A stretch of DNA of 64,000 bases from contig NZ_JARXWB010000001.1 in NCBI RefSeq assembly GCF_029892425.1, positions 310,001 through 374,000 of the forward strand, read 5' to 3'. Made by a program: the position numbers and the translations under genes. This document shows positions 33,271 through 60,212 of the stretch, piece by piece (positions within the stretch are counted from its first letter, which is position 1; the number at the start of each line of letters is the position of its first letter). The notes beneath the pieces were generated by a model that searched no databases, was not told where the DNA came from, and saw only the letters and a list, made by a program, of their open reading frames with translations. The DNA is from Bradyrhizobium sp. BR13661 (lineage in GTDB: Bacteria > Pseudomonadota > Alphaproteobacteria > Rhizobiales > Xanthobacteraceae).

Positions 33271-33274
33271 CTTC

Positions 33275-38338: not shown

Positions 38339-38353
38339 TCCTTTGTCCCCCAA

Positions 38354-38743
38354 ACAATGATCTGCAGCAGCAATCGACGTTGATTGCTACGCCACCCACC
38401 TATGACTGAAGATGCGAATTGAGGCATTAATAGTTCGACATTTCGTCATGATGCCGAAGGCATTTCAGCTTGCGTTCAGGAAGAGATGGCTGCGATCGTT
38501 TCGCAAGAAGGGAGGCGCAAGGCGGCCAAGGGTAGCGGTAAAATCGGACCCGAGCGCCTTGTGGGAGCGTATGTAGCTGCAGCAATGTACCAATTTTCCG
38601 GCCGCAGAACTGCGATGCATTCTCAGCTGCGCGAGAAGCGTGCCGGCGCGGTACGCTGAGTTCGGTGGCCGGTGGCGTGGCCATGTGTTTTTCACAGAGG
38701 CAGTTGGCGAGATAGGTGCAGATCGCAGCGCACACCACGCGAA
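38354..38743. other. Gene-free spacer between ccmF and the ankyrin gene
   Basis: 390 bp holding the upstream control region of the ccmF unit and one TTCAG direct repeat. Open frames here (for example 38427-38747 minus) lack any protein-like pattern. Confidence 0.4.
38464..38479 (+). promoter_or_regulatory. TTCAG-N6-TTCAG box (candidate response-regulator site), ccmF region
   Basis: TTCAGCTTGCGTTCAG, two copies of TTCAG with 11-bp period, about 125 nt upstream of the ccmF ATG. The repeat is written on the plus strand, opposite to ccmF, unlike the other copies. Confidence 0.5.
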
Positions 38744-41543: not shown

Positions 41544-41923
41544 CGGCTGGTGTCCCGGTATTGTATCGAACCTCAGCCGCGTTGCTGAGCTCGTCGTTAT
41601 GGTGCGTCGAGACCGATCTCTCCGTCGCCTCGCGTCGTGCGGCTTTCGAAATCGGCAGGCAGCGTTCTTACGACAATCCTCTTCTCGAGAAGCCGCCGGC
41701 GATCCGCAAAATGCTCGAACTCCGTTGGCAGGACGTTAAGGACGCGCGCTCATTACAACCTTAATCAAATCGTCGTGGAGGAAATAAGACTCAACCATGC
41801 AGTACGCGTGGCAGCGAGCAGGGCGACTTTCAGCTGACGTTCAGGATCGGCTGCAAAATTCCAGATATCCTGTTGGCTGATCAGGAATCATCCCGAACAT
41901 CTCTAGGACCAGTCGTACGTCGC
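41544..41923. promoter_or_regulatory. Divergent promoter region of the flavoprotein and cytochrome b genes
   Basis: About 380 bp between divergent starts. It holds one TTCAG direct repeat (41829-41844) and an AT-rich GATATCCT about 20 nt after it that could be a -10. No credible gene. Confidence 0.45.
41829..41844 (+). promoter_or_regulatory. TTCAG-N6-TTCAG box, cytochrome b promoter
   Basis: TTCAGCTGACGTTCAG with 11-bp period, 80 nt upstream of ATG 41924 and 285 nt upstream of the divergent flavoprotein gene. Confidence 0.6.
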
Positions 41924-42805
41924 ATGGGGAGAGGAGAATCGGTCGCAGCCTATGTCATGAGCCCGATCACCCAGATGCTGCCGGCGATCACCGCTGTGGC
42001 GGTGCTCGGGGTGATCGTCGCGGGATGGCTGCAACGTGGTGAGGAATATCTGGTGCCGGAGTCCGGTCCCGGATATTGGCTCGGAATCGGCGGCAGTATG
42101 GCGATGCTGTCGCTTCTCGTCTATTCCCTTCGCAAGCGATACAGGGCAGCGCGGATCATCGGATCGGTTCGCTTCTGGTTTCGTACGCATATGCTACTAG
42201 GGATCGCTGGCCCGGTCCTCGTCCTGTTTCACACGAATTTCAAGCTCGGTCCGATGAACAGTAATGTCGCTCTGTTTGCGATGCTGCTGGTCGCCTGCAG
42301 TGGGATCGTCGGGAAATATATCTATGGCAAGATCCACATGGGTCTTTACGGGCACAAGGCGAGGGTTGAGGAAATCCTGGCTCAGGCCGATGAGCTGAAA
42401 CGCGAGCTTGGCGAGGAGCTCAAGGCAGCCGAATTCGTCTCGCGGGAGCTCAACGCGTTCAGCAACGAGATCAAGGGCAAGACGCCGACAACCGCCATCG
42501 GCAGCCTGTGGTTTGGTGCGATCATTGCCGTGCGTGCGCGCGCGCTCCGTCACCATCTGATTGCCGAGGCCAGACGTCTGATCCGTATCGAAGGCAAGGC
42601 TCGGGGATGGTCATGGTGGCAGCGACGTCAAGGGCTCAGAAAGATCACGCAGATTGTGCGGCTCTATTCGGCGGCGGTGATCAAGGCCGCGGAACTCGGC
42701 TTCTATGAACGGCTGTTTGCGTTATGGCACGTCCTGCACTTGCCGCTGTTCTTTCTGATGGTGGGGACCGGGATCATCCATGTTTGGGCGGTCCACCATT
42801 ACTGA
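41924..42805 (+). CDS. b-type membrane cytochrome (di-haem candidate)
   Basis: About 293 residues with five or so membrane helices. A TTG at 41873 would add 17 residues but lies where transcription probably starts, and ATG 41957 is a later alternative. Candidate haem ligands are paired: HMLLGIAGPVLVLFH in one helix (His 14 apart) and WHVLHLPLFF with IIHVWAVHHY in the last helices. A cytoplasmic basic loop separates the two halves. No known family name fits firmly, but it resembles ferric-reductase/cytochrome b561-type electron carriers. It precedes the 18-haem gene by 15 nt, so it likely exchanges electrons with it across the inner membrane. Confidence 0.7.
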   Translation: MGRGESVAAYVMSPITQMLPAITAVAVLGVIVAGWLQRGEEYLVPESGPGYWLGIGGSMAMLSLLVYSLRKRYRAARIIGSVRFWFRTHMLLGIAGPVLVLFHTNFKLGPMNSNVALFAMLLVACSGIVGKYIYGKIHMGLYGHKARVEEILAQADELKRELGEELKAAEFVSRELNAFSNEIKGKTPTTAIGSLWFGAIIAVRARALRHHLIAEARRLIRIEGKARGWSWWQRRQGLRKITQIVRLYSAAVIKAAELGFYERLFALWHVLHLPLFFLMVGTGIIHVWAVHHY

Positions 42806-42820
42806 GGGGAGAGGCAAGTG

Positions 42821-44246: not shown

Positions 44247-44262
44247 TTCAGCTGCCGTTCAG
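44247..44262 (+). promoter_or_regulatory. TTCAG-N6-TTCAG box 1, giant cytochrome promoter
   Basis: TTCAGCTGCCGTTCAG with 11-bp period; differs from the cytochrome b box at one base. Confidence 0.6.
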
Positions 44263-44580: not shown

Positions 44581-47500
44581 TTGGCTGAGTGCCTTAGTCA
44601 TCTGACGCGCTTGATGCGTCGCGCGCGCGCCGTGCTGTTGGGCGCCGCCGTCGCTTGCCTGCTCGTCGTCGGCGGCTTGCACCATGCTCTGGCACAAGGG
44701 AGCTCGTTCGATCACTTCGCCACCGGCTTTCCGTTGACCGGCAGCCACCAAACAGTCGATTGCGGTTCATGTCATGGGTCGGGACGCTTCAAGGCAACGC
44801 CGACCGCCTGCGTCGGCTGTCACAACGGGGCGCAAACCTCGGGGAAACCGGTCAACCATCCGAGAACGAGTCCGCTCTGCGGGGTCTGTCACCAGACCAC
44901 GCGATGGAACGATATCCGCGTCATCGACCACACTCAGGCAACTGACACCTGTGCGGCTTGCCACAACGGCACGATGGCGCGCGGCAGGCCGTCAAATCAC
45001 ATGCCCACCGTCGCGCCGTGCGAAACCTGTCACAAGACCACGGCGAGCTTCGCCCTTGCGACCAGAATGGATCACACGGGAATCACCGGTGGTTGCGCGA
45101 CGTGTCACAACGGAACGACTGCCCTTGGCAAGCCGGCCACCCATGTGCCGACCGTCATGCCTTGCGAGACCTGCCATACCAGCACGGTCAGCTTCGCCAT
45201 CGTCACGAAGTTCGATCATACGGGAATCACGTCCGGATGCGCGAGCTGCCACAACAACGTGACGGCGCTCGGCAAGCCGGGCAATCATGTGCCGACGAAC
45301 CTGCCCTGCGAGACCTGTCACGCGAGCACTGTCAGCTTCGCGGGAGCAATCTACCGGCACAAGCCGTCGGATACGAATTGCACGAGCTGTCACGACAACG
45401 TCGTTGCGTCGGGCATGGCGACACCGCCGCATATCCCGGCGCGCGGCGTGCAATGCAGCCAATGCCACACCAACACGGCGCCGAGCTTCACATCATATAC
45501 GATGAACCATGCGGCGGTGGTCGGCACCCGGTGCGACTCCTGTCACAACGGCAGCTATACCGCCGAGGGCAGCAAGGGGGCCTTCGGCACTGCCCAGCAT
45601 CCAAATCATGTCGCGACCAGCGGCCAGGACTGCGTGACCTGCCACGCATCCGCCGCCAACAGCTACATCAGCTGGTCCGGGGCGACGTTTGTTCATCAGG
45701 CGGCCGATACCAATTGCGCGAGCTGCCACAATGGGGCGGTGGCCCTGGGCCAGACAACCCCACCGCATGTTCCGATCGGCGCGGTTCAGTGCAGCCAATG
45801 CCACACGAATTCGGCGTCGAGCTTCGCGACCTACAACATGAATCACGCGGCGGTATCCGCGAGCCGCTGCGATAGCTGTCACAACGGATCGTTCGCGAAC
45901 GAAGGCACGGCGGGAGCGCAGGGCAGCTCGTCCTTCGCCAACCATGTTGCGACCGGCGGCCGCGACTGTATCACATGTCATGCCAGAGCAGCCGCGAGCT
46001 TCACGAGCTGGAGCGGCGGCAAGTATCTTCACGCCGCCTCGGATACGAATTGCTCCTCGTGCCACAACGGAGCGACGGCGCCCGGAATGACCACGCCGCC
46101 GCACATCCCATCAGGCTCGGCGCAGTGCAGCAACTGCCATACCAACACGGCATCGAGCTTCGCGACCTACACAATGAACCATACGGCGGTCACCGCGGTC
46201 CGCTGTGATGCCTGCCATTCGGGAGCGTATACGGGAGAAGGCAGCAAAGGCGCGTTCGGCACCTCGTCCTATCCGGGACATATCGCGACGGCCGGTCGCG
46301 ACTGCGCAACCTGCCATACCAACGCGGCCCCCGCTTTCGCGAGCTTCGCCGGCGCTGTGTATGTGCATCTTGCGACCGACACCAACTGCTCGTCTTGTCA
46401 CAATGGGACCACGGCGACCGGCAAGGCAACAAGCCATGTTCCTGTGGGCACCGTTCAATGCAGCAGCTGCCACACGAGCGCGGCGGTCAGCTTTGTCGCC
46501 TACACGATGAACCACGCATCCGTGAGTTCGAATCGCTGCGACAGCTGCCACAACGGGTCCTATGTCGGCCAAGGCACCAAAGGTGCGTTGGGAAACTCGT
46601 CGTATCCCGGACACGTCGCGACCAACGGACAAGATTGCATCACCTGCCACGCCTCCGCGACCGCGGGCTTTGTCTCCTGGGCTGGGGCGGTCTACGTGCA
46701 CCAGCCGAGCGATACGAATTGCGCGAGCTGCCACAACGGTACGATTGCGACGGGGAATTCGACCCCGCCGCACATTCCGGCGTCCGGAGTTCAGTGCAGT
46801 GGCTGCCACAGCAACACCGCGGCGAGCTTCACCTCCTACACGATGAATCATGCGGCGGTGAGCGCCAGCCGTTGCGATTCCTGTCACAACGGCTCCTTCA
46901 CCGGCCAGGGGACCAAGGGCGCGTTCGCGACGACGGCCTATCCCGGCCACGTCTTCACCGCGGGGCGCGATTGCTCGACCTGTCACGCGAGCGCGATGAC
47001 GAGCTTCTCGAGCTGGGCAGGCGGCGCCTATGTGCACGCCGCGTCGGACACCAATTGCGTGAGCTGCCACGACGGGCTGATGGCGACCGGAATGACGACG
47101 CCGCCGCACGTGCCGTCGGGATCCACCCAGTGCAGCAACTGTCACAGCAATACGGCGGCGAATTTTACCAGCTATACGATGAACCACAGCGCGGTGAGCG
47201 CGCTGCGTTGCGACGCCTGCCACAACGGCGCCTATGGCAGCGAGGGTAGCAAGGGCGCGTTGGGCACGGCATCATATCCGGGGCACGTGCCGACCAACAG
47301 TTGGGATTGCGCGACCTGCCATGCCAAGGCGGCGGCGAGCTTCACCAACTGGTCGGGCGGCTCATACGTCCACGGAGCTTCCGATACCAACTGCGTGAAC
47401 TGCCACAACGGGAAGACGGCAACCGGTTTCACGACACCGCCGCACGTTCCGACAGCGTCGACCCAGTGCAGCAATTGCCACAGCAACACGGCCGCGAGCT

Positions 47501-50500
47501 TCGTCAGCTACACCATGAATCATGCTGCGGTTGCCACGGTCCGCTGCGATGCCTGCCACAGCGGGTCGTTTACAAGTCAGGGCTCCAGCGGCGCCCAGGG
47601 GACCGCGTCTTATCCCAATCATGTCGCCACGGCTGGACGCGATTGCGTCACTTGTCATGCCAACACCGGTTTCACCAGCTGGGCCGGCGGCCTCTATGTC
47701 CACCAGGCGAGCGATACGAACTGCAACTCCTGCCACAATGGGAGGACGGCGACAGGGTTGACCACACCGCCACATATTCCGACCGGAACGATCCAGTGCA
47801 GCAGCTGCCACAGCAATACCGCCGCGAGCTTTGCGAGCTACACGATGAACCATACCGCGGTGGCGGCCACGCGGTGTGATTCCTGCCACAACGGATCTTA
47901 TGCGGGCGAAGGAACGAAGGGCGCCTACGGCACGACATTCTATGCCGGACACCTTCCCACCAACGGCAATGATTGCGCGACCTGTCATACCAAGGCGGCG
48001 AGCGGCGGATACGTCACCTGGGCCGGCGCCGTCTACGTGCACCAGGCCGGCGACGTCAATTGCGCAAACTGCCACAACGGCACGATTGCGACAGGACACA
48101 CGACGCCCCCGCATGTGCCGGTCGGCACGCTCCAGTGCAGCAATTGCCATACCAACACGGCGCAGAGTTTCGTCACCTATGCGATGAACCACGCCGCCGT
48201 CAGCGCGAGCCGCTGCGACAGCTGCCACAATGGATCCTTCGCAAGTCAGGGCAACATGGGCGCCTACGGCACGGCGAATCATCCGGGCCATGTGGCCACC
48301 AACGGTCAGGACTGCATCGCCTGCCACGCCAAGGCCGCAACGGGGTTCACCAGCTGGGCGAACGGCACCTATGTGCACCAGGCCTCCGACACCAACTGCA
48401 TCGGCTGTCATGGGGGAGGCGCAGCCACCGGGATGGCCACACCGCCGCACATTCCCTCAGGAACGGTTCAGTGCAGCAACTGCCACAGCAACACCGCGGC
48501 GAGCTTTGCGACCTATACGATGAACCACGCGGCCGTGAGCGCCGTGCGCTGCGACGCGTGTCACAACGGATCATATACGACCGAGGGTGCCAAAGGCGCG
48601 CAGGGAACCGCCTCTTATCCCAATCACGTTGCGACCAGCGGGCGAGATTGTGTCACCTGCCATGCATCGGCGGCCGCGAGCTTTACCGCATGGTCGGGCG
48701 GTACCTATGTGCACCAGCCGGCAGATACCGCCTGCTCGACCTGCCACAACGGGAAAACGGCGCTCGGACTGGCGACGCCGCCGCATGTGCCGGTCGGGAC
48801 CGTTCAGTGCAGCAACTGCCACGTCAACACCGCCGCAAGCTTCGTCACCTACACGATGTCGCATGCGGCGGTGGGCGCGAGCAGGTGCGATTCCTGCCAT
48901 AACGGCTCGTATACAGGCGAAGGAAGCAGGGGCGCGCAGGGCACGTCCTCGTTCACGGGACATGTTGCGACCAACGGCTGGGATTGCGTCACCTGTCACG
49001 CGACCGCGGCGACAGCCTTCACCAGCTGGGCCGGCGGCAAGTATGTCCACCAGGCCGGTGATACCAATTGCTCGAGCTGCCACAACAACACGACCGCGCT
49101 CGGCATGACGACGCCGCCGCACATTCCAAGCGCAACGGTGCAGTGCAGCCATTGCCATACCAGCACGGCGGCGAGCTTTACGACTTACGCCATGACGCAC
49201 TCCGCCGTGAGCGCGATGCGTTGCGACGCCTGCCACAATGGTTCCTTCGCCAGCCAGGGCAGCAGCGGCGCGCTCGGGACCGCAGCCCATCCGAACCACG
49301 TCGCAACCGCGGGGCGCGACTGCGTCACCTGCCATGCAGCCGCCGCCGCGAGCTTCTCGAGCTGGGCAGGCGCGACCTACAACCACCAGGCAGCGGACAC
49401 CAATTGCTCGATCTGCCACAACGGCAGCAATGCGCTGGGCTTGACAACACCGCCCCACATACCGTCAGCAACCGTTCAGTGCAGTAACTGCCACACCAGC
49501 ACGGCGACGAGCTTCGTCACCTACACGATGAATCACAGCGCGGTCAGCACGATGCGCTGCGATGCCTGCCACAACGGCTCGTACGCGTCGGAAGGTACGA
49601 AGGGCGCTCTCGCGACCACGGCCTATGCCGGCCACGTCGCAACCAGCGGGCGGGACTGCGTCACGTGCCACGCATCGGCGGCTGCGAGCTTCACGGCATG
49701 GACGGGCGGTACCTATGTGCACCAGCCCGCGGACACCGCCTGCTCGAATTGCCACAACGGAAAGACCGCGCTCGGGCTGACCACGCCGCCGCATGTGCCC
49801 GTCGGCACGGTTCAGTGCAGCAGCTGCCACGCTAACACCGCCGCAAGCTTCACCGCCTACACCATGTCCCATTCGGCGGTGAGCGCGAGCCGGTGCGATT
49901 CCTGTCACAACGGCACCTACACAGGCGAAGGAAGCAGGGGCGCGCAGGGCACGGCGTCCTTCTCCGGACATGTTGCGACGAACGGCTGGGATTGCGCGAC
50001 CTGTCACGCGAGTGCGGCGACGACGTTCTCGAGCTGGGCCGGCGGCAAATACACCCACCAGGCCGGCGACACCAATTGCTCGAGCTGCCACAACAACACG
50101 ATCGCGCTCGGCATGACGACGCCGCCGCACATTCCAAGCGCAGCGGTCCAGTGCAGCCATTGCCATACCAACACGGCGGCGAGCTTTACGACTTACGCCA
50201 TGACGCACTCCGCCGTGAGCGCGTTGCGTTGCGACGCCTGTCACAATGGATCTTTTGCCAGCCAAGGCAGCAGCGGAGCGCTCGGCACCGCAGCCTATGC
50301 GAACCACGTCGCGACGGCCGGGCGCGACTGCGTCACCTGCCATGCGGCCGCCGCCGCGAGCTTCTCGAGCTGGGCCGGAGCAACCTACAGCCATCAGGCG
50401 GCGGACACCAATTGCGCGAGCTGCCACAACGGCACCAATGCGCTCGGCATGACAACGCCGCCGCATATTCCGTCGGCCACCGTTCAGTGCAGCAATTGCC

Positions 50501-53500
50501 ACACCAATACCGCGGCGAGCTTCGTCACCTACACGATGAGCCACAGCGCGGTCTCTACGATGCGCTGCGATGCCTGCCACAATGGCTCATACACGTCGGA
50601 AGGCACCAAAGGTGCCTACGCGACCACGGCCTATGCCGGCCATGTCGCGACTGGCGGGCGGGACTGCGCCACGTGCCATGCGACTGCCGCGAGCAGCGGC
50701 TATGTCAGCTGGTCCGGGGCGATCTATTCGCATCTGCCGACCGATACCAACTGCGCGAATTGTCACAACGGAACGACGGCGACCGGCAACACCACGCCGC
50801 CGCATATCCCGGCGACCAATATCCAGTGCAGCAATTGTCACACCAGCAGTGCGGTCTCCTTCGTCACCTACACCATGAACCATGTGGCGGTGAGCGCGGC
50901 GCGTTGCGATTCGTGCCACAACGGCTCCTTCGCGGCCGAAGGCACCAAGGGCGCGTACGGTACGGCGAACTATTCCGGCCACGTTGCGACCGGAGGCCGC
51001 GACTGCGCCACCTGCCACGCGACAGCGGTGAGCGGTGGCTACGCATCATGGGCCGGAGGCACCTATCCGCACCAGCCGACCGACACCAATTGCGCGAGTT
51101 GTCACAACGGGACGACGGCGACCGGCAACACCACGCCGCCGCACATTCCGATGACCGGCGTCCAGTGCAGCAACTGCCACAGCAATACCGCGACGAGCTT
51201 CATCTCGTACACGATGAACCATGCGGCGGTGGGTGCGGCGCGGTGCGATAGCTGCCACAATGGATCGTTCACGAGCCAGGGCGCCAAAGGCGCGTACGGG
51301 ACGGCCAGCTATCCGGGGCACGTCGCGACCAGCGGCCGAGACTGTGCGACCTGTCACGCCTCGGCGGTGAGTGGCGGTTATGCCTCCTGGACCGGCGGCA
51401 CCTATGCGCACCAGGCTAGCGACACCAATTGCGTCAGCTGCCACAACGGCACCTCCGCGCTCGGCCTGACCACGCCGCCGCATATTCCGACCGGTTCGGT
51501 CCAGTGCAGCAACTGTCACAGCAACAGCGCGGCGAGCTTCGTCAGCTACACCATGAACCACGCGGCGGTCGCCGGCACGCGATGCGACGCCTGTCACAAC
51601 GGCTCATATGCAACCGAGGGCACCAAGGGCGCGCTCGGCACATCGAGCCGTCCCAACCACATCGCGACCGGCGGTCGCGACTGCGTGACGTGCCATGCGA
51701 GCGCGGCCTCGACCTATACGAGCTGGGCGGGCGGCGGATATGTGCACCAAGCGACGGACACCAACTGCTCGAGCTGCCACAACGGCTCGACTGCACTCGG
51801 CTTGACGACACCGCCGCATGTTCCGGTCGGCGCGGTCCAGTGCAGCAACTGTCACACCAGCACGGCGGCAAGCTTCGTCAGCTATACGATGAACCACTCG
51901 GCGGTCAGTGTCAGCCGCTGCGATTCCTGTCACAACGGCTCCTATGCATCCGAAGGCACCAAGGGAGCGCAGGGAACGGCATCTCGTGCGAACCACGTCG
52001 CGACGGCCGGGCGCGACTGCGTCACCTGCCATGCGGCCGCCGCCGCGAGCTTCTCGAGCTGGGCCGGAGCGACCTACAGCCATCAGGCGGCGGACACCAA
52101 TTGCGCGAGCTGCCACAACGGCACCAATGCGCTCGGCATGACAACGCCGCCGCATATTCCGTCAGCCACCGTTCAGTGCAGCAATTGCCACACCAATACC
52201 GCGGCGAGCTTCGTCACCTACACGATGAGCCACAGCGCGGTCTCTACGATGCGCTGCGATGCCTGCCACAATGGCTCATACACGTCGGAAGGCACCAAAG
52301 GTGCCTACGCGACCACGGCCTATGCCGGCCATGTCGCGACCGGCGGGCGGGACTGCGTCACGTGCCACGCATCGGCGGCTGCGAGCTTCACGGCGTGGAC
52401 GGGCGGCACCTATGCGCACCAAGCCACGGACACCAATTGCATCAGCTGCCATAACGGCAGCACCGCGCTGGGGCTGACCACGCCGCCACACATTCCGACA
52501 GGCTCGGTCCAGTGCAGCAACTGCCACAACAGCAGTGCGGCAAGCTTTGTCACCTACACCATGAACCATGCGGCGGTGACCGGCACGCGCTGCGATGCCT
52601 GCCACAACGGTTCGTATGCGACCGAAGGTACCAAGGGTGCGCTCGGCACGTCGAGCTATCCCAACCATATCGCCACCGGTGGCCGCGATTGCGTGACCTG
52701 CCACAGCAGCGCTGCTTCGACCTACACGAGCTGGGCCGGCGGCGGATATGTGCACCAGGCGACGGACACAAACTGCTCGAGCTGCCACAGCGGCAGCATT
52801 GCGCTTGGCCTGACCACACCGCCGCACGTTCCGGTCGGGGCGGTCCAGTGCAGCAATTGCCACAGCAATACGGCCGCAAGCTTCGTCACCTACACGATGA
52901 ACCACACGGCGGTCAGCGCCAGCCGCTGCGATTCCTGCCACAACGGCTCCTACACGTCGGAAGGCACCAAGGGCGCGCAGGGAACGGCGTCCTATGCCAA
53001 TCACGTCGCGACCGGCGGCCGGGATTGCATGACTTGTCACGCCAGCTCGACCACGAGCTTTGCGAGCTGGTCCGGCGGAACCTATGCGCACCAGGCAGCC
53101 GACACCAACTGTCGCACGTGCCACAACGGCAGCATCGCACGCGGTCTGACCACGCCGCCGCACATCCCTACGGCCGGCGCCCAGTGCAGCAATTGTCACA
53201 CCAGCTCGGCCGTCAGCTTCGTCACCTACACGATGAACCATGCGACGGTGAGCGCGAGCCGCTGCGACGCCTGCCACAATGGCTCCTACACGTCGGAAGG
53301 GACCAAGGGGGCCATGGGCACCGCATCCTATCCGGGGCACGTCGCCACTGGTGGACGCGACTGCATCACTTGCCACGCCGGCGCCGCGACCAGCTTCGCG
53401 AGCTGGTCCGGAGGCGCGTACATCCATCTTGCCACCGATACCAACTGTGTCGGCTGCCACAACGGTGCCACGGCGACCGGAATGACGACGCCGCCGCACA

Positions 53501-55611
53501 TTCCGACCGCCACCATCCAGTGCAGCAATTGCCACAACAATTCGGCAACAAGCTTCACGACCTACACCATGAGTCATGCGGCGGTGACGGGCTCGCGCTG
53601 CGATTCCTGTCACAGCGGTTCCTACACCTCGCAAGGTACCAAGGGCGCCTACGGCACAGCCTCCTATGCCGGCCACGTTCCTACCAATGCCAACGACTGT
53701 GCCACCTGCCATGCCAAGGCGGTGAGTGGCGGCTATGTGAGCTGGGCCGGCGGCACCTACGTCCATACGGCGGCCGACACCAATTGCTCGTCTTGTCACA
53801 ACGGCGCGACCGCAACCGGACTGACCACGCCGCCGCACATTCCTGTGACAGGAATCCAATGCAGCAATTGCCACACGTCGAGTGCGACGAGCTTCACGAC
53901 TTATACGATGTCCCATGCGGCGGTTCATGCCACGCGGTGTGACTCCTGCCATAACGGCGCCTACAGGAGCCAGGGCAGCCAGGGTGCGCAAGGGCCAGAT
54001 CACAGCGCCAAGACGCAGGATTGTGGTTGCTGCCACGTGAGGTCGACCACGAGTTTCTCGAGCTGGAGCGACCCGCAGCAGCCCGCAGCCGGCTGCGTCA
54101 CCACCGCGAAAACATTGGTCCCCGCCAAACAGACCAGGCTCGCCACGATGACCAAGTCGATCCAATCCGTCGTCACGCGAACGATCTCCGACGTGACCGC
54201 GATGGTGCGCTCGGCGGCCTCGAAGCTTGGAGGCGCCGCGCCGCAACCGCCTCATCAGACGGGCGTCGCTGCAACGCCCAAGACTGCGCCGACACCCACG
54301 CCGGTGCCGACGGCTGCCCCCGCGCCCACGATGCGCGCCGCGGCTGCGCAGAATCCGGCCAGCACGCTCCTGTTCAACAACAAGCCGGTGTCGACCTCGA
54401 CCTTCGTACCGGGGGCCAAGCCGGCCGATCCCGCCGCGGCGCTTGCTCCTTCGACGCAGGCCAAAGCGAATCCGGCCGCGTCAAACTTCACCAAGGTTGC
54501 GCCGGTCGGACCGAGCGGCACGTCCAAGCCCGGCGTCGCGGCGTCAGCGCCGGCGGTTCTCCCGCCGTCGGCCTCGGCGCCGTCCCCGCTCGCGCAAAAT
54601 TCGGCCCAGGTTCCCAACCCGGTACGAAACATGTTGCCTCCCGCCATCGGTCCCCCGGCCGCGACCGCGCAGAATTTCGGCTCGCCATCGCCGGCTGCAG
54701 GGAACGGAGCGACGGGTCCCTCAGCTCTGGGATTGTCCGGCAGGTTCAACCACGCGACCGCGCGAGGACCATGTGCCACATGCCATAACGGCCGCGATGC
54801 AGCCGGCAAGCCGGCGCGGCACGTCGTCACCAACGCGCCGTGCGAAACCTGCCACAAGAGCACTGTCACCTTCGGCGGCGCCAAGTTCACGCACAATTCC
54901 GCGACGGCCGCATGCGCCTCTTGCCACAACGGCACAGTTGCTGGCGGCAAGCCGCCGAAGCACGTCCCGTCCAGCGCAGCCTGCGAATCCTGTCACAAGA
55001 GCACGACGACGTTTGCCGGCGCACGCTTCAATCACCTGGCGGTGACGGCAACGTGCGCGAGCTGCCACAATGGGACGATCGCCGTCGGCAAGCCGCCGAA
55101 GCACGTGCTCACGACGGCCGCATGCGATAGCTGCCACAAGAGCACGGTGTCCTTTGGCGGTGCGCGGATGGATCACAGCAACGTCACCGTCCCATGCGCC
55201 AATTGCCACAACGGGACGAACGCCCAGGGCAGGGGCCAAAAGCACTTCGTTACGACCCAGCCTTGCGACAGCTGTCATCGCACCAGCAGCTGGACATCGG
55301 TGACCTACCGCCATGCATCGGCGACGTATCCAAATCACGGCGCGACGATTGCCTGCGGGAGTTGCCACACCAGCAACGCGCAGGTCGTGCCCTGGAAGCT
55401 TGCGTCCTACAAGCCCGACTGCGCTGCGTGCCATGCCGCCGAATTCAGGCCGCAGCAGCACATCAAGGCCGCCAAGCCCGTACCGGTCTACTACACGGCT
55501 GCCGAGCTCAAGGACTGCGCCGGTGCCTGCCACCTGTACGCGGACAAGTCACTGACGGCGATCCTGACACGCCGTCCCAAATCACATCGTGTCAACGGAG
55601 GCGGCTGGTGA
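44581..55611 (+). CDS. Giant multihaem cytochrome c, 123 CxxCH plus one CxxxCH
   Basis: Start set at TTG 44581, because GGAGAAGGGG ends just before it; ATG 44614 (MRRARAVLLG) and GTG 44458 are alternatives. About 3,676 residues. Signal peptide with core VLLGAAVACLLVVGG, cut near HALAQG; no lipobox. N-terminal cap (to about residue 259): nine haem motifs in two-haem units with H-x6-CxxCH. Centre (about 260-3160): 26 tandem modules of about 112 residues, each with four motifs in order DTNCxxCH, QCSxCH, RCDxCH, DCxTCH, each preceded by His at x6-7. A degraded 27th module keeps one Cys (54094). Then a haem-free Pro/Ala linker (to about 3387), then a C-terminal cap like the N-cap with ten CxxCH and a final CAGACH (55516-55533). 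All haems should be bis-His. Likely a covalent nanowire; whether periplasmic or external is unknown. Confidence 0.93.
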   Translation: MAECLSHLTRLMRRARAVLLGAAVACLLVVGGLHHALAQGSSFDHFATGFPLTGSHQTVDCGSCHGSGRFKATPTACVGCHNGAQTSGKPVNHPRTSPLCGVCHQTTRWNDIRVIDHTQATDTCAACHNGTMARGRPSNHMPTVAPCETCHKTTASFALATRMDHTGITGGCATCHNGTTALGKPATHVPTVMPCETCHTSTVSFAIVTKFDHTGITSGCASCHNNVTALGKPGNHVPTNLPCETCHASTVSFAGAIYRHKPSDTNCTSCHDNVVASGMATPPHIPARGVQCSQCHTNTAPSFTSYTMNHAAVVGTRCDSCHNGSYTAEGSKGAFGTAQHPNHVATSGQDCVTCHASAANSYISWSGATFVHQAADTNCASCHNGAVALGQTTPPHVPIGAVQCSQCHTNSASSFATYNMNHAAVSASRCDSCHNGSFANEGTAGAQGSSSFANHVATGGRDCITCHARAAASFTSWSGGKYLHAASDTNCSSCHNGATAPGMTTPPHIPSGSAQCSNCHTNTASSFATYTMNHTAVTAVRCDACHSGAYTGEGSKGAFGTSSYPGHIATAGRDCATCHTNAAPAFASFAGAVYVHLATDTNCSSCHNGTTATGKATSHVPVGTVQCSSCHTSAAVSFVAYTMNHASVSSNRCDSCHNGSYVGQGTKGALGNSSYPGHVATNGQDCITCHASATAGFVSWAGAVYVHQPSDTNCASCHNGTIATGNSTPPHIPASGVQCSGCHSNTAASFTSYTMNHAAVSASRCDSCHNGSFTGQGTKGAFATTAYPGHVFTAGRDCSTCHASAMTSFSSWAGGAYVHAASDTNCVSCHDGLMATGMTTPPHVPSGSTQCSNCHSNTAANFTSYTMNHSAVSALRCDACHNGAYGSEGSKGALGTASYPGHVPTNSWDCATCHAKAAASFTNWSGGSYVHGASDTNCVNCHNGKTATGFTTPPHVPTASTQCSNCHSNTAASFVSYTMNHAAVATVRCDACHSGSFTSQGSSGAQGTASYPNHVATAGRDCVTCHANTGFTSWAGGLYVHQASDTNCNSCHNGRTATGLTTPPHIPTGTIQCSSCHSNTAASFASYTMNHTAVAATRCDSCHNGSYAGEGTKGAYGTTFYAGHLPTNGNDCATCHTKAASGGYVTWAGAVYVHQAGDVNCANCHNGTIATGHTTPPHVPVGTLQCSNCHTNTAQSFVTYAMNHAAVSASRCDSCHNGSFASQGNMGAYGTANHPGHVATNGQDCIACHAKAATGFTSWANGTYVHQASDTNCIGCHGGGAATGMATPPHIPSGTVQCSNCHSNTAASFATYTMNHAAVSAVRCDACHNGSYTTEGAKGAQGTASYPNHVATSGRDCVTCHASAAASFTAWSGGTYVHQPADTACSTCHNGKTALGLATPPHVPVGTVQCSNCHVNTAASFVTYTMSHAAVGASRCDSCHNGSYTGEGSRGAQGTSSFTGHVATNGWDCVTCHATAATAFTSWAGGKYVHQAGDTNCSSCHNNTTALGMTTPPHIPSATVQCSHCHTSTAASFTTYAMTHSAVSAMRCDACHNGSFASQGSSGALGTAAHPNHVATAGRDCVTCHAAAAASFSSWAGATYNHQAADTNCSICHNGSNALGLTTPPHIPSATVQCSNCHTSTATSFVTYTMNHSAVSTMRCDACHNGSYASEGTKGALATTAYAGHVATSGRDCVTCHASAAASFTAWTGGTYVHQPADTACSNCHNGKTALGLTTPPHVPVGTVQCSSCHANTAASFTAYTMSHSAVSASRCDSCHNGTYTGEGSRGAQGTASFSGHVATNGWDCATCHASAATTFSSWAGGKYTHQAGDTNCSSCHNNTIALGMTTPPHIPSAAVQCSHCHTNTAASFTTYAMTHSAVSALRCDACHNGSFASQGSSGALGTAAYANHVATAGRDCVTCHAAAAASFSSWAGATYSHQAADTNCASCHNGTNALGMTTPPHIPSATVQCSNCHTNTAASFVTYTMSHSAVSTMRCDACHNGSYTSEGTKGAYATTAYAGHVATGGRDCATCHATAASSGYVSWSGAIYSHLPTDTNCANCHNGTTATGNTTPPHIPATNIQCSNCHTSSAVSFVTYTMNHVAVSAARCDSCHNGSFAAEGTKGAYGTANYSGHVATGGRDCATCHATAVSGGYASWAGGTYPHQPTDTNCASCHNGTTATGNTTPPHIPMTGVQCSNCHSNTATSFISYTMNHAAVGAARCDSCHNGSFTSQGAKGAYGTASYPGHVATSGRDCATCHASAVSGGYASWTGGTYAHQASDTNCVSCHNGTSALGLTTPPHIPTGSVQCSNCHSNSAASFVSYTMNHAAVAGTRCDACHNGSYATEGTKGALGTSSRPNHIATGGRDCVTCHASAASTYTSWAGGGYVHQATDTNCSSCHNGSTALGLTTPPHVPVGAVQCSNCHTSTAASFVSYTMNHSAVSVSRCDSCHNGSYASEGTKGAQGTASRANHVATAGRDCVTCHAAAAASFSSWAGATYSHQAADTNCASCHNGTNALGMTTPPHIPSATVQCSNCHTNTAASFVTYTMSHSAVSTMRCDACHNGSYTSEGTKGAYATTAYAGHVATGGRDCVTCHASAAASFTAWTGGTYAHQATDTNCISCHNGSTALGLTTPPHIPTGSVQCSNCHNSSAASFVTYTMNHAAVTGTRCDACHNGSYATEGTKGALGTSSYPNHIATGGRDCVTCHSSAASTYTSWAGGGYVHQATDTNCSSCHSGSIALGLTTPPHVPVGAVQCSNCHSNTAASFVTYTMNHTAVSASRCDSCHNGSYTSEGTKGAQGTASYANHVATGGRDCMTCHASSTTSFASWSGGTYAHQAADTNCRTCHNGSIARGLTTPPHIPTAGAQCSNCHTSSAVSFVTYTMNHATVSASRCDACHNGSYTSEGTKGAMGTASYPGHVATGGRDCITCHAGAATSFASWSGGAYIHLATDTNCVGCHNGATATGMTTPPHIPTATIQCSNCHNNSATSFTTYTMSHAAVTGSRCDSCHSGSYTSQGTKGAYGTASYAGHVPTNANDCATCHAKAVSGGYVSWAGGTYVHTAADTNCSSCHNGATATGLTTPPHIPVTGIQCSNCHTSSATSFTTYTMSHAAVHATRCDSCHNGAYRSQGSQGAQGPDHSAKTQDCGCCHVRSTTSFSSWSDPQQPAAGCVTTAKTLVPAKQTRLATMTKSIQSVVTRTISDVTAMVRSAASKLGGAAPQPPHQTGVAATPKTAPTPTPVPTAAPAPTMRAAAAQNPASTLLFNNKPVSTSTFVPGAKPADPAAALAPSTQAKANPAASNFTKVAPVGPSGTSKPGVAASAPAVLPPSASAPSPLAQNSAQVPNPVRNMLPPAIGPPAATAQNFGSPSPAAGNGATGPSALGLSGRFNHATARGPCATCHNGRDAAGKPARHVVTNAPCETCHKSTVTFGGAKFTHNSATAACASCHNGTVAGGKPPKHVPSSAACESCHKSTTTFAGARFNHLAVTATCASCHNGTIAVGKPPKHVLTTAACDSCHKSTVSFGGARMDHSNVTVPCANCHNGTNAQGRGQKHFVTTQPCDSCHRTSSWTSVTYRHASATYPNHGATIACGSCHTSNAQVVPWKLASYKPDCAACHAAEFRPQQHIKAAKPVPVYYTAAELKDCAGACHLYADKSLTAILTRRPKSHRVNGGGW
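45350..54080 (+). repeat. 26 tandem ~336-bp coding repeats (four-haem modules)
   Basis: The DTNC/DTAC/DVNC codons that open each module recur at about 45370, 45709, 46040, 46378, 46711, 47048, 47386, 47710, 48052, 48387, 48724, 49060, 49396, 49733, 50069, 50405, 50744, 51080, 51419, 51758, 52094, 52430, 52767, 53100, 53437 and 53775. Spacing is 324-342 bp. Lengths vary by whole codons at the loop after the fourth haem (AAASF versus VSGGY types). Confidence 0.95.
48890..50540 (+). repeat. Higher-order duplication of about 1 kb inside the haem repeats
   Basis: Three-module block starting near 48890 (YTGEGSRGAQGT ... SHCHT ... FASQGSSGALGTAA) is repeated about 1,008 bp later near 49900 with few residue changes, so modules 11-13 and 14-16 are tandem copies. 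Confidence 0.8.
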
Positions 55612-58600
55612 TCGCATACGCTTCCAATAGGCTTCGCCTGAGATCTGCTTACGGCCGCACAGCGGTCGTATTTGGAGCCCTTTTGGCGGCGGTCGTGCTG
55701 CCCACGCCCGGTACGCTGGCCCAGCCGGTGATCGACCAGTTCGTGGCAAGCGCCGCCGTAACTGCGTCCGGCAATTGCAGCGTGCTGCGCGTCAACTTCA
55801 ATTGGCGTGTTCGCTATACCGGGCACTTTCCCCCGGATCGCGGCAGCCAGTTGCGGATCTCGCTTCAGCTGGTCGATCGGGACGCCGTGGTCGACGGCCG
55901 CCTGACCCCCCGGGAAGGCGTCAGAGTCGACAACGGCGCCGCAGCCGGAATTGTCGCGGTCGACCTTGCGCTCGATCAGTCGATTGGTCCCGTGCTGGAG
56001 ATTCGGTTCGCCCGACCGACCGCCTATCAGGTCGTGCAGTCGGGCAGCTTTGAGCAGGTGGCGGTCGCGATCTCGAAGAACGGGTCGGCCGCGACGTGCA
56101 AGGTGAGCGGGGTTGGAAAGTCGGGCCTGCCGAGCGGCGCTGGCCCGGATAAGCTCGGGGCCGATGTCGGCAAGTCCGTGCGAAGCGCGCCCGCACGCGC
56201 CGGCGGCGTGTCGGAGAGTGATGCGAAGGCAATCGACGCCTCGATGGATGAGGCACGCGCGGCGATCAAGAAAAGCAACTTCGCCGAAGCCGCCGACCTC
56301 CTGAAGAAGGTTCTGAAATATCCGGAAAACAAGTCCAGCGCCGAGGCGCAGGAATTGCTCGGCGTCGTCAGGCTGAAGGCCGGACAACGCACGGCCGCGA
56401 GGGCCGAATTCGAGGACTATCTGCGACGATACCCGGATGGCGAGGGCGCGGAGCGCGTTCGCCAGCGCCTCGCGGCCCTGCTCACCGCCGAGGGAGCGGC
56501 GCCCGAGAAGCTGCGCGGCAGCATCGATGTCTCACCCGGCGCGGGCGAGCCGAAGAAGACGGGATCGACCGGGGAGACCCGGTGGTCGGTGTCCGGCAGC
56601 GTCTCGGGTTTCTACATCACCAATGACAGTGCGACCACGGCGAAGGATCTGTCGACGGCGCCGAACCCCAACGCCGATCCTGATGCGCACCGCTCGCACC
56701 TCAATACGCTGCTCGCCAACTACGACATGTTCGGCACCGCCGACAACGACCAGATCAAAGCCAAGTTCAAGCTTGCATTCACGCAGGAACATCAGCTCGA
56801 CAACCGGACAGACAAGTACGGTGTCTCGACCGCGAGCGTGGACTATACGCTCAAGGAGTACGACGTGACCGCCAGGGTCGGTCGCCAGTCGCGCAATACG
56901 GGCGGCGTGATCGGCCGGTTCGATGGCGCCGTCGTGAGCTGGCAGCAAAGTCCCGATCTGCGCTTCAACGTCCTGGCTGGATCTCCGAACTGGAGCCGCT
57001 TCGATGCGCCGTTTGCGAACGGCAAGAGCCTATACGGAACGAGCGTCGATTTCGGCAAATGGTTCGGCGTGCTCGAGACCAGCCTGTTCGCAATCGAGCA
57101 GTATGATCGCGACATCATCGATCGCCGCGCCGTAGGCGCCGAGTTCCGCTATTTCGACAGGAACAAGTCGGCGCTGGGGACCCTCGATTACGACGTTCAC
57201 TTCAACCGGCTCAACGCTGCGATCTTCTCCGGCACCTATACGCTGGAGGACAAGTCAGTGATCAACACCGCTCTCGACTATCGGAAGGTGCCGTATCTGT
57301 CGACCTGGAACGCGCTCCAGGGCCAGCCCTTCCTGACCCTGTACGACATGATGAAGTTCAACACGGCGGAAGAGGTCAGGCAGTTCGCGATCGATCGCAC
57401 GCCGACCTTCGAATCCGCAATGGTGAGCTACTCGCGTCCGCTCAGCGAGACCTACCAGATCGGCGCCGACGCGACGGTGACCAATCTCTCCGGCACCATG
57501 CCGTCCGGCGGCGTCGACGGCACGCCGGCGAGCGGGCTTGAATATTACGTGTCCACCCAGCTCACAGGGACCGGCATCTTCAAACCCGGTGACCTCCTGA
57601 TGGGCGCGGTCCGCTACGCCAGCCTTTCCGATTCAAAAATCTACGTCCTCGATCTGAACACGCGCTACCCGGTGACGCCGGATCTCAGCGTTAGCCCACG
57701 GCTGCGTCTCGGATACCGCAGGGGTGTCGGGACAGATCTCAGGGAGATCACGGTGCTGCCGTCGTTCCTGGTCAACTACATCTGGTGGAAAGGCGTCAGC
57801 CTGGAGGCCGAGATCGGGACCAAATATCTGGAAAGCACGCTGTCCGGCGTCAAGTCGACCACCAAGGATCTGTTTGCCACGCTCGGCATTCGCAAGGATT
57901 TCGGCACCGACGGCGTCACGCAATGCCACGCGTCGGCTGTGAGTTGCGCGTGGGCGAAGCCAGCCGGCACTCCGGCGGCTGCGGGGCGAGCAGGGACTTC
58001 CCCGCCGCTGGTTGCGGGCTACGCCATCGAGACCGGATTGCGATACTGGTTCAGCTCCGCGAAGAACCGATACAGCTATTTCGCCGATTCGACTCCCAGC
58101 ACCGAAGTCTCGCGCCTGAGCTACGGTGGCCTGGCGGGCCATTCGGGCGAAGTATTCTTCCGCGTCGATGCGCTGGATGGGCCGCTGACCAACATGTTCG
58201 TCAAGGGATTTGTCGGGGCCGGCAAGATCACAAGCGGCAAGCTGTTCGACGAGGATTTCCAGCCCTTTGTGGATCCGTCGTCGAAGACGAGCAGCAGCGC
58301 TCGCGGCAACCTGCAGTATGCCAGCATCGATCTCGGCTACAATCTCCTGCAGATCGATCGTTTCCGCTTCGGCGCGTTCGTCGGATATCACCATTGGCTC
58401 GAGACGGTGGATGTGCGGGGCTGCACCCAGATCGGAGGCAATCCGTTCATCTGCGCGCCAGCGTTGCCCGCCAATCTGAAAGTCATCACCGAGCAGGACC
58501 GCTGGGAAACCGGCCGTGCCGGCATTTCGGTCGAGGCGCGCCTGTTGGATCGGCTGACTTGGCAAGCCGAAATCGCTTATGCGTGGACCACGCAGCATGC

Positions 58601-58829
58601 GACCGACACGCACTATCTTACGTTCGGCCGGGATCCTGCGTCGGGTCGCGGACAGGGCTTCCAGACGGAATCGACTCTCAAATATCAGCTGAACGACAGT
58701 TTCGAGATCGGCATCGGTGGGCGCTGGTGGCATTTCAACACGGACGCGATCGATTCCTTCGACCAGATGCTGCGCTACACGACCGACCGATACGGCGTGT
58801 TCGTTCAGGGAACCTACAAGTTCAACTAA
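55608..58829 (+). CDS. Outer-membrane beta-barrel protein with periplasmic TPR part
   Basis: GTG 55608 overlaps the giant cytochrome stop (GTGA), giving 1,073 residues. Signal peptide FGALLAAVVLPTPGTLAQP. Residues about 40-190 form an all-beta region; about 200-300 carry TPR-like helices (FAEAADLLKKVLKYPENK, AEAQELLGVVRLKAGQRT). About 330 to the end is a long series of alternating amphipathic strands with aromatic girdle residues, ending GTYKFN, typical of outer-membrane barrels. Strict coupling to the cytochrome suggests a porin-cytochrome conduit of the MtrB/PioB kind in function, but no sequence match to those was tested. Exopolysaccharide-export barrels with TPR parts are the main alternative. 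Confidence 0.8.
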   Translation: MIAYASNRLRLRSAYGRTAVVFGALLAAVVLPTPGTLAQPVIDQFVASAAVTASGNCSVLRVNFNWRVRYTGHFPPDRGSQLRISLQLVDRDAVVDGRLTPREGVRVDNGAAAGIVAVDLALDQSIGPVLEIRFARPTAYQVVQSGSFEQVAVAISKNGSAATCKVSGVGKSGLPSGAGPDKLGADVGKSVRSAPARAGGVSESDAKAIDASMDEARAAIKKSNFAEAADLLKKVLKYPENKSSAEAQELLGVVRLKAGQRTAARAEFEDYLRRYPDGEGAERVRQRLAALLTAEGAAPEKLRGSIDVSPGAGEPKKTGSTGETRWSVSGSVSGFYITNDSATTAKDLSTAPNPNADPDAHRSHLNTLLANYDMFGTADNDQIKAKFKLAFTQEHQLDNRTDKYGVSTASVDYTLKEYDVTARVGRQSRNTGGVIGRFDGAVVSWQQSPDLRFNVLAGSPNWSRFDAPFANGKSLYGTSVDFGKWFGVLETSLFAIEQYDRDIIDRRAVGAEFRYFDRNKSALGTLDYDVHFNRLNAAIFSGTYTLEDKSVINTALDYRKVPYLSTWNALQGQPFLTLYDMMKFNTAEEVRQFAIDRTPTFESAMVSYSRPLSETYQIGADATVTNLSGTMPSGGVDGTPASGLEYYVSTQLTGTGIFKPGDLLMGAVRYASLSDSKIYVLDLNTRYPVTPDLSVSPRLRLGYRRGVGTDLREITVLPSFLVNYIWWKGVSLEAEIGTKYLESTLSGVKSTTKDLFATLGIRKDFGTDGVTQCHASAVSCAWAKPAGTPAAAGRAGTSPPLVAGYAIETGLRYWFSSAKNRYSYFADSTPSTEVSRLSYGGLAGHSGEVFFRVDALDGPLTNMFVKGFVGAGKITSGKLFDEDFQPFVDPSSKTSSSARGNLQYASIDLGYNLLQIDRFRFGAFVGYHHWLETVDVRGCTQIGGNPFICAPALPANLKVITEQDRWETGRAGISVEARLLDRLTWQAEIAYAWTTQHATDTHYLTFGRDPASGRGQGFQTESTLKYQLNDSFEIGIGGRWWHFNTDAIDSFDQMLRYTTDRYGVFVQGTYKFN

Positions 58830-60196: not shown

Positions 60197-60212
60197 TTCA
60201 GGTCAGGTTCAG
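60197..60212 (+). promoter_or_regulatory. TTCAG-N6-TTCAG box before a structured non-coding stretch
   Basis: TTCAGGTCAGGTTCAG with 11-bp period, on the plus strand, where no plus-strand protein gene follows. Transcription would enter the hairpin region at 60241-60317. Confidence 0.5.

What the first reader, a model, noticed from the sequence alone, without database searches (positions are those of the whole stretch)
44581..55611. A single polypeptide with 123 CxxCH motifs plus one CxxxCH in a Bradyrhizobium-type genome
Counting by eye gives 9 motifs in the N-terminal cap, 26 modules x 4 = 104, and 10 canonical plus one CAGACH in the C-terminal cap. Described multihaem cytochromes mostly carry up to a few tens of haems; I know of none near this number in Alphaproteobacteria. 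Nanowire cytochromes such as OmcS reach great length by polymerising small subunits. This gene seems to encode the wire covalently in one chain. With haem spacing typical of stacked multihaem proteins the chain would span tens of nanometres, more than a periplasm.
Basis: partly seen in the sequence, partly recalled or inferred. Interest (0 to 1): 0.96.

Follow-up and report, generated by a model that had tools for sequence, protein, structure and literature searches.

The report
Giant 124-haem wire with haem factory
A Bradyrhizobium-type bacterium carries one unbroken gene for a single protein with 124 haem-attachment motifs, likely a very long electron wire at the cell surface, in a gene cluster that also holds second copies of genes for making and attaching haem.

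Summary
In detail: one frame at 44446-55611 (likely start 44614) has 123 CxxCH plus one CxxxCH. All 25 full ~112-aa modules keep four CxxCH and four further histidines under purifying selection (median dN/dS 0.18). The locus fits PCC3 (He et al. 2017, PMC5566968), a predicted porin-cytochrome conduit reported there with 85 sites in a plant symbiont; 112 sites in one protein are also in print (PMC11495043), and a Methylocystis bryophila database protein has 188. Not found in the papers I searched: the linked haem cassette, a ccmFGHI haem-ligation set (CcmF, H and I are second copies) and a second ALA synthase. Cassette-type CcmF occurs in exactly the 11 of 265 genus genomes with a long porin match (ten near full-length, one shorter). 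Likely function: extracellular electron wire joined through the porin and an 18-haem cytochrome to the quinone pool; direction unknown. Both structure models failed. A ~350-bp repeat leaves five modules open to mis-assembly or real loss. New variant of a known kind.

The parts
44614..55611 (+). Giant multihaem cytochrome (extracellular-MHC component of a PCC3-type cluster), 3665 aa from ATG 44614; 123 CxxCH + 1 CxxxCH; predicted Sec signal 44614-44697
   Evidence: Motif counts; Pfam Cytochrome_C7/Cytochrom_c3_2; signal peptide read by eye
44698..45528 (+). N-terminal cap, 11 CxxCH
45529..53934 (+). Array of 25 full modules (110-113 aa), 4 CxxCH + 4 further His each, all invariant
53935..54105 (+). 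Array terminator with CGCCH and an extra Cys (PAAGC); a CxCCH-type terminator is also in the 8 of 10 relatives whose contig covers it
54106..54771 (+). Pro/Ala/Ser-rich linker without haem motifs (222 aa); the 8 relatives that cover it have 171-234 residues between the flanking motifs
54772..55608 (+). C-terminal cap, 10 CxxCH + CAGACH
55608..58829 (+). Outer-membrane porin candidate with N-terminal TPR region (1073 aa); PCC3 porin component
   Evidence: Homologues; TPR; strand-rich low-confidence model
58854..60098 (+). 5-aminolevulinate synthase, second copy in the genome (other copy 77% identical on contig C2)
42818..44179 (+). 18-haem cytochrome, predicted periplasmic MHC of PCC3
41873..42805 (+). 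Inner-membrane di-haem cytochrome b-like protein (PCC3 IMP): two WX3HX13H and SGXXG
40236..41543 (-). 4Fe-4S dicluster / FAD pyridine-nucleotide oxidoreductase
38744..40375 (-). Sel1/ankyrin-repeat protein conserved in the cassette
36356..38353 (-). CcmF, cassette-type (54% to the other copy on contig C9)
35810..36346 (-). CcmG/DsbE thiol-disulfide protein (no copy seen beside the other ccm genes on C9; not searched elsewhere)
35310..35813 (-). CcmH (52% to the other copy on C9)
33985..35313 (-). CcmI/CycH (31% to the other copy on C9)
33275..33784 (-). OmpR-family response regulator; the listed frame starts inside the receiver domain
31921..33399 (-). Sensor histidine kinase (best NCBIfam match PhoQ, below cut-off)
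41829..41844 (+). TTCAG-N6-TTCAG direct repeat in front of the inner-membrane protein gene
44247..44262 (+). TTCAG-N6-TTCAG direct repeat in front of the giant gene
38464..38479 (+). TTCAG-N6-TTCAG direct repeat in front of ccmF (opposite orientation to the gene)

Best explanation
This locus encodes a PCC3-type porin-cytochrome cluster whose largest cytochrome carries 123 CxxCH plus one CxxxCH in one chain, and it likely works as a very long extracellular electron wire that would be joined through a predicted outer-membrane porin to an 18-haem cytochrome and a predicted di-haem membrane protein at the quinone pool. Shown by sequence: the motif count, the repeat, purifying selection, the neighbouring porin candidate, 18-haem cytochrome and inner-membrane protein with the published PCC3 motifs, and the flanking ccmFGHI genes and second ALA synthase. 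Inferred: export of the giant chain through the porin, bis-His haem stacking, and electron conduction between an outside donor or acceptor and the quinone pool. Also inferred: the cassette's haem-ligation set and ALA synthase serve the load of about 142 c-haems per giant-plus-18-haem pair; the two-component system switches the cluster on through the TTCAG repeats; the Fe-S/FAD protein exchanges electrons with NAD(P)H at the cytoplasmic side. The C-terminal 11-haem cap on its linker would be the docking plug and the 113-haem part the free wire. Direction is undecided; electron uptake from minerals or other solid donors is my guess.
For: Motifs and frame. All 8 Cys and 8 His per module invariant in 25 of 25 full modules of this protein and in 54 regularly spaced, partly overlapping four-module segments from 7 loci (irregular segments were left out). 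Median dN/dS 0.18 over the 163 of 300 module pairs of equal length. PCC3 definition read in PMC5566968 sections 15 and 17; IMP motifs in the window and 6 of 6 relatives. In 7 of 7 genus loci fetched with both sides (window plus G153, G222, G085, G086, G160, G167) the IMP, 18-haem, giant, porin, ALA synthase, Fe-S/FAD, ankyrin, CcmF and CcmH genes are together, in the same order in six and rearranged in G167. Among the six relatives CcmG was not found in G160 and CcmI not in the stretch read of G153. Cassette-type CcmF (77-89% identical) in exactly the 11 of 265 genus genomes with a long porin match; next best CcmF 55-56%; chance of identical sets 1e-19, ignoring kinship. Second copies of CcmF, CcmH and CcmI lie together on contig C9. 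ALA synthase in the cluster in 9 of 10 assessable loci (miss: G002; G102 cut off). Direct repeat 314-367 bp before the giant frame in 5 of 7 loci; TTCAGCTGNCGTTCAG occurs twice in 8.94 Mb, both here.
Against: No structure, expression or electrochemistry. Both structure models failed (pLDDT 37 and 42), so barrel, stacking and length are unproven. A motif-free linker breaks the haem series. In Sideroxydans lithotrophicus ES-1 both PCC3 clusters were down-regulated on Fe(II) (PMC8788666, passages), against a simple iron-oxidation role. RuBisCO is in 11 of 11 cassette genomes but also in 240 of 265 genus genomes, so it gives no support for electron uptake. In two distant PCC3 loci with full flanks (G863, G970) no CcmF, G, H or ALA synthase was found: the haem genes are not part of PCC3 in general. 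A response regulator (50% identical) and kinase (31%) also lie on C9 near the other ccm genes, so the two-component pair may belong to ccm clusters rather than to the wire. The repeat is absent in G153 and G167.
Confidence: 0.75

Rival explanations
1. Capacitor rather than wire: the giant chain is an electron store (a large periplasmic or surface haem reservoir) that buffers intermittent donors or acceptors; conduction over distance is incidental.
For: Array length varies widely among relatives (43 to 123 CxxCH) while the 18-haem partner has 18 in all 7 loci, which suits a capacity that can be tuned. Storage has been proposed for large MHCs in PMC7399161 (section read) and PMC11495043 (passages). 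The linker interrupts the series.
Against: A porin candidate and an inner-membrane protein are kept in all 7 complete genus loci, which points to through-envelope transfer. Storage and conduction are not exclusive.
Confidence: 0.3
2. Periplasmic chain: the giant protein stays in the periplasm or cell envelope and the porin serves another task.
For: Sec-type signal without lipobox (by eye); no further export signal seen. The porin candidate has a TPR region.
Against: In PCC3 the large MHC beside the porin is assigned outside (model in PMC5566968); if stacked as in OmcZ or MtrA it would be about 90-124 nm, longer than a periplasm is wide (width recalled).
Confidence: 0.15
3. Over-long by assembly: the true array is shorter (for example 20 full modules, 103 CxxCH as in P0007), and the extra five modules come from mis-assembly.
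For: P0007 lacks exactly modules 16-20 and its other modules are identical or 99% identical; a ~350-bp near-exact repeat sits at that 5-module offset.
Against: Only three exact repeats of 60 bp or more exist in the gene, all in that block; no two modules are more than 93% identical in protein, so the five were not made by a fresh copy. Such a repeat would more easily collapse an assembly than expand it (inference). Even at 103 the conclusion stands.
Confidence: 0.1
4. Decaying gene or non-expressed repeat expansion.
For: No expression data.
Against: dN/dS 0.18, invariant Cys/His, intact frame, conserved cluster.
Confidence: 0.03

Closest known systems
PCC3 porin-cytochrome cluster (He et al. 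2017, PMC5566968), including Agromonas oligotrophica S58 with 85 haem sites
   Same: Porin candidate, giant MHC of tandem repeats, second MHC, ~300-aa inner-membrane protein with two WX3HX13H and SGXXG, adjacent genes; 29 aa per haem here against their 22-39
   Different: 123 + 1 sites against 85; embedded in a cassette with ccmFGHI, ALA synthase, Fe-S/FAD protein, ankyrin protein and two-component genes. That main text has no hit for ccm, maturation, aminolevulinate, heme biosynthesis, ankyrin, two-component, ferredoxin or histidine kinase; its two hits for 'Fe-S cluster' concern PCC4. Its supplements were not read.
ANME archaeal MHC-B with its neighbouring CcmF2 (PMC9012536)
   Same: Very large MHC next to a specialised CcmF paralogue, thought there to serve the giant apoprotein (section read); largest ANME MHC 86 motifs
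   Different: Archaeal, S-layer domain; here a porin candidate, a set of ccmFGHI and a haem-precursor enzyme are linked
MtrCAB / MtoAB porin-decahaem complexes
   Same: General layout of porin plus MHC; the giant passes the DmsE/MtrA-type model TIGR03508 as a sum over 22 stretches
   Different: Porin candidate gives no family match beyond TPR-type models; 18 and 124 motifs instead of 10 + 10
OmcS / OmcE / OmcZ cytochrome filaments
   Same: Long-range haem chain as idea
   Different: Filaments of small subunits; no sequence match to any solved chain; here one covalent chain
Methylocystis bryophila giant (P0006, 5805 aa, 188 CxxCH, 42 anchors of ~124 aa)
   Same: 52% identity over 81% of the query, same terminator; a porin homologue named M. 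bryophila (P0192, 48%) is on a contig of the same length
   Different: Longer modules and more of them; its neighbourhood could not be read here

Membership tests
PCC3 porin-cytochrome cluster | Large extracellular MHC with very many CxxCH and low residue-to-haem ratio | tested here: met
   123 + 1 motifs, 29.3 aa per haem; location outside the cell not testable
PCC3 porin-cytochrome cluster | Second, periplasmic MHC (median 21 sites) | tested here: met
   18 CxxCH at 42818-44179; periplasmic location not testable
PCC3 porin-cytochrome cluster | ~300-aa inner-membrane protein with SGXXG and two WX3HX13H | tested here: met
   Both motifs in window and 6 of 6 relatives; five TM helices not resolved by my hydropathy scan
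PCC3 porin-cytochrome cluster | Beta-barrel porin beside the MHCs | tested here: inconclusive
   Adjacent strand-rich protein, model pLDDT 42; weak homologues (28-31% identity) in three of the five loci found with the IMP profile, the other two being cut off
PCC3 porin-cytochrome cluster | Carries electrons across the outer membrane | not testable with these tools
   Called 'functionally unverified' in PMC12442390 (passages)
MtrCAB/MtoAB | MtrB-type porin | tested here: not met
   Pfam and NCBIfam scans of the porin candidate give TPR-type and related envelope models only
MtrCAB/MtoAB | Decahaem MtrA/DmsE-type cytochrome | tested here: not met
   P0002 scores 22.7 against cut-off 192.2 for TIGR03508; P0001 does pass it (419.4 bits, 22 stretches) but has 124 motifs, not 10
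OmcS/OmcE/OmcZ filaments | Sequence relationship to these cytochromes | tested here: not met
   No PDB chain at E 0.001 with a 54-row module profile; low power, since no cytochrome of any kind was found
ANME MHC-A/B | S-layer domain fused to MHC | tested here: not met
   Pfam scan of the giant lists cytochrome families and one weak below-cut-off match, no S-layer domain

The most novel reading that the evidence does not exclude
A self-supplied nanowire cassette: a covalent ~100-nm electron wire whose length evolves in whole 4-haem modules, packaged with its own haem-precursor enzyme, its own haem-ligation complex specialised for a giant apoprotein, and its own two-component switch, so that a soil or groundwater alphaproteobacterium can turn on a cell-surface wire without drawing down the housekeeping cytochrome c supply.
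Probability: 0.3. Interest if true: 0.87.

Novelty: new variant of a known kind. Interest (0 to 1): 0.63.

Why it matters
It points to relatives in which a one-chain electron wire could be tested genetically (single-contig genomes with 85 and 101 sites, and Methylocystis bryophila with 188), and it links wire size to dedicated haem supply and ligation. A partner fixed at 18 haems beside a giant of 43-123 makes 'does length set reach or capacity?' directly testable. The parallel with ANME archaea, which also pair a special CcmF with giant cytochromes, suggests a general need for special ligation of giant apocytochromes.

Tried and rejected
Structure of four modules (54-row alignment of own and relatives' segments): pLDDT 37, unusable, so no fold search was run. 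Porin model: pLDDT 42, only the TPR part confident. PDB sequence searches: none for modules or the 18-haem protein; almost only TPR proteins for the porin.

Frameshift at the array end (odd residues after CGCCH): rejected, because the same terminator is in P0006 and a CxCCH-type terminator in 8 of 10 relatives, the other two being cut off.

RuBisCO as a sign of electron uptake: rejected, 240 of 265 genus genomes have it. Photosynthetic reaction centre: 5 of 11 cassette genomes, not the own one, so not tied to photosynthesis.

Strict four-haem steps: within G222, G085 and G086 totals differ by 12 and 16, but over seven loci the totals leave remainder 2 (five) or 0 (two) on division by four, so other steps occur too.

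tRNA-anchored island: a tRNA-Met lies at 31449-31525. Of seven stretches from five relatives, six showed no tRNA and one a tRNA-Arg; many end before the matching border, so undecided.

Sigma-70 promoter and terminator scans: no excess over shuffles. Array search in the order: 3 of 397 sampled genomes at E 1e-30, all in the genus.

Full report
Observation. The frame 44446-55611 (+) is open over 3721 residues with 123 CxxCH and one CxxxCH. Shuffling the protein gives a mean of 1.17 CxxCH, maximum 6 in 500. The likely start is ATG 44614, followed by a Sec-type signal read by eye. Layout: N cap with 11 motifs, 25 full modules of 110-113 residues with four motifs each, a terminator with two (the second is CGCCH), a Pro/Ala/Ser-rich linker of 222 residues without motifs, and a C cap with 10 plus CAGACH. 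TRF sees the array as 25.2 copies of 336 bp. Pfam assigns cytochrome c7/c3 families.

Is it a working array? In all 25 full modules the eight cysteines, the four motif histidines and four further histidines are invariant. The same columns are invariant over 54 four-module segments, partly overlapping and chosen for regular spacing, from seven loci. That is one further histidine per haem, as bis-histidine ligation would need (inference). Modules are 56-93% identical (median 68%). Nei-Gojobori on the 163 of 300 module pairs of equal length gives median pS 0.60, pN 0.20 and dN/dS 0.18. So the array is diverged and under purifying selection. Three exact repeats of 60 bp or more exist, all in one block of about 350 bp at a shift of 1689 bp, five modules. 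P0007, a database protein on a 64,670-base contig of unstated source, lacks exactly modules 16-20; of its 20 full modules 19 are identical and one is 99% identical to the window's. This is either loss by recombination or an assembly difference.

Relatives of the giant. The protein search scored 2218 candidates; 134 pass and 120 are listed. Of the 120 listed (P0005 is the window's own), 16 have over 100 CxxCH and 6 have more than 123. The largest, from Methylocystis bryophila, has 188 in 5805 residues on a 4.54-Mb contig; one search lists a porin homologue (48%) named M. bryophila whose longest contig has the same length. In the genus, the giants read whole carry 53, 73, 85, 101, 43 and 61 CxxCH plus one CxxxCH (G153, G222, G085, G086, G160, G167). 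Three of those genomes are single contigs (G085, G086, G167). In the four other genus loci (G152, G231, G002, G102) the giant runs off a contig end. Totals in G222, G085 and G086 (74, 86, 102) differ by 12 and 16, whole modules of four; over seven loci the totals leave remainder 2 (five) or 0 (two) on division by four, so other steps occur too. The partner cytochrome has 18 motifs in all seven loci (window plus six).

The cluster. Downstream lie a 1073-residue porin candidate with a TPR region and a 5-aminolevulinate synthase. Upstream lie the 18-haem cytochrome and an inner-membrane protein. Divergently lie an Fe-S/FAD oxidoreductase, a Sel1/ankyrin protein, CcmF, CcmG, CcmH, CcmI, an OmpR-family response regulator and a histidine kinase. 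The genome (8.94 Mb, 91 contigs) has other copies of CcmF (53-54%), CcmH (52%) and CcmI (31%) together on contig C9 and another ALA synthase at 77%. No CcmG was seen in the C9 stretch; I did not search for it elsewhere. A response regulator (50%) and kinase (31%) lie in the same C9 stretch. I built an ALA synthase tree from 27 of the 34 matches, leaving out the seven at 57-60% identity; the copy labels are mine. On one side of a well supported split (97/93) are the 11 housekeeping copies and one G102 copy; on the other are all 9 cassette copies and six further copies.

Co-occurrence. Among 265 genus genomes, 128 have a porin match; it is near full-length in 10 (own, G152, G153, G102, G231, G002, G222, G085, G086, G160) and covers residues 12-786 in G167 (up to two candidates scored per genome). 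The other 117 genomes match weakly; those listed hit mainly the C-terminal ~290 residues. The cassette-type CcmF (77-89% identity, own excluded) occurs in exactly the same 11; the next match is 55-56% (three incomplete genomes had no CcmF match). Chance for identical sets is 1e-19, without correction for kinship. In four of the 11 (G152, G231, G002, G102) CcmF and porin are on different contigs, so linkage was seen in seven. ALA synthase lies in the cluster in 9 of 10 assessable loci; G002 lacks it on the stretch read and G102 is cut off.

Beyond the genus. A Sphingomonadales MAG (L098) has the oxidoreductase, IMP, 24- and 35-haem cytochromes, porin candidate and CcmF, G, H and an I-like protein. 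A phylum-wide sample of 398 genomes searched with the IMP profile gave five further loci at E 1e-25. Of these six distant loci, the oxidoreductase is present in four (L098, G775, G863, G970) and CcmF, G, H in two, both Alphaproteobacteria (L098, G775; CcmF 49-54%, and whether these are second copies was not tested). G684 and G971 are cut off downstream; G863 and G970 have full flanks without CcmF, G, H or ALA synthase. No ALA synthase was seen in any of the six. So the oxidoreductase is a frequent PCC3 partner, and the ccm link looks like an alphaproteobacterial feature, on few loci.

Regulation. TTCAG-N6-TTCAG, two half-sites 11 bp apart, lies before the inner-membrane protein gene (41829), before the giant (44247), before ccmF (38464) and after the ALA synthase (60197). 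With one mismatch allowed there are 8 matches in the window against 2.5 expected, none of 100 shuffles reaching 8; three of the 8 fall inside the giant gene. TTCAGCTGNCGTTCAG occurs twice in the whole genome, both here. An exact repeat lies 314-335 bp before the open frame of the giant in four relatives and 367 bp before ATG 44614 here, so in 5 of 7 loci; G153, where the giant follows the 18-haem gene directly, and G167 have none. An 11-bp direct repeat is typical of OmpR-family regulators (recalled), and the response regulator beside the ccm genes is of that family. Binding is untested, and the similar pair on C9 means the two-component genes may belong to ccm clusters in general.

What it is. 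The core genes match PCC3 of He et al. 2017: two MHCs, a porin candidate and an IMP with SGXXG and two WX3HX13H (sections 15 and 17 read; motif test). They report 85 sites in Agromonas oligotrophica S58; my G085 has 85 CxxCH in one 8,264,165-base contig and is probably that strain (name not given by the tool). Other papers: Gallionellaceae extracellular PCC3 cytochromes with 10-35 sites (PMC10734462, passages), 86 in an ANME-2c fosmid (PMC9012536, passages and one section), and 112 in a Paludibaculum MAG (PMC11495043, passages). Motif number varying between close relatives, by insertion or loss of CxxCH domains, is described in PMC7399161 (section 18). A CcmF paralogue beside giant cytochromes is described for ANME, and PMC10734462 lists CcmH-type genes in its section on genes distinct to iron oxidisers. 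I found no paper that describes a combined ccmFGHI and ALA synthase cassette with PCC3. The library searches were made; none of them was aimed at ccm or ALA synthase terms. Term searches for such genes in the main texts of four PCC3 papers were PMC5566968; PMC12442390, 'maturation' only; PMC10734462; PMC8788666. Two of the six papers listed were not opened, and supplements could not be read.

How it likely works. Electrons would pass between an outside donor or acceptor and the quinone pool through the giant chain, porin, 18-haem cytochrome and di-haem membrane protein. This follows the published PCC3 model and is not shown. If stacked like OmcZ (about 58 A per eight-haem subunit, PMC9473688 passages) or MtrA (about 100 A for ten, as quoted in PMC5566968), 124 haems would span about 90-124 nm; no model supports this number. 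The linker means that the main array and the C cap may be two electrical units; I suggest the cap docks and the array extends. Direction is undecided: PCC3 was not induced by Fe(II) in ES-1, and RuBisCO is no discriminator.

Verdict. The finding is real. It is an extreme member of a described system, larger than the counts I found in print but smaller than six listed database relatives. The new part is the linked haem-supply and haem-ligation cassette and the exact match, across 265 genomes, between its CcmF type and the long porin.

Noticed in passing
window 38744-40375 (-): Sel1 plus ankyrin-repeat protein kept in the window and all six complete relatives (41-52% identity); role unknown, perhaps a scaffold or assembly factor.
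   Followed up: partly
window 55608-58829, residues ~782-1072: The C-terminal ~290 residues of the porin candidate resemble other outer-membrane-type proteins in many genus genomes (117 of 265 have only a weaker match; the listed ones lie mainly here), and G167's match ends at residue 786; the porin may be a fusion of two barrels.
   Followed up: partly
window 31449-31525: tRNA-Met at the left border of the cluster, beyond the histidine kinase; possible island border.
   Followed up: partly
window 60197-60212: A further exact TTCAG-N6-TTCAG between the ALA synthase and the following opposite-strand ABC transporter gene.
   Followed up: no
L129 (G000:C9:206000-225000): The other ccm genes of this genome (CcmI, CcmF, CcmH) also have an OmpR-type regulator and a kinase nearby.
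   Followed up: partly
G002 (L050, L095): Giant and porin present but no ALA synthase on the stretch read; the only assessable genus locus without it.
   Followed up: no
G970 (L125, L126): A distant PCC3-like locus in which two smaller cytochromes (11 and 13 CxxCH) flank the porin candidate, a possible split state.
   Followed up: no
P0049, P0026, P0017, P0030, P0015: Other proteins with 129-134 CxxCH among the homologues; P0049, P0026 and P0046 also have 10-19 CxxxxCH.
   Followed up: no
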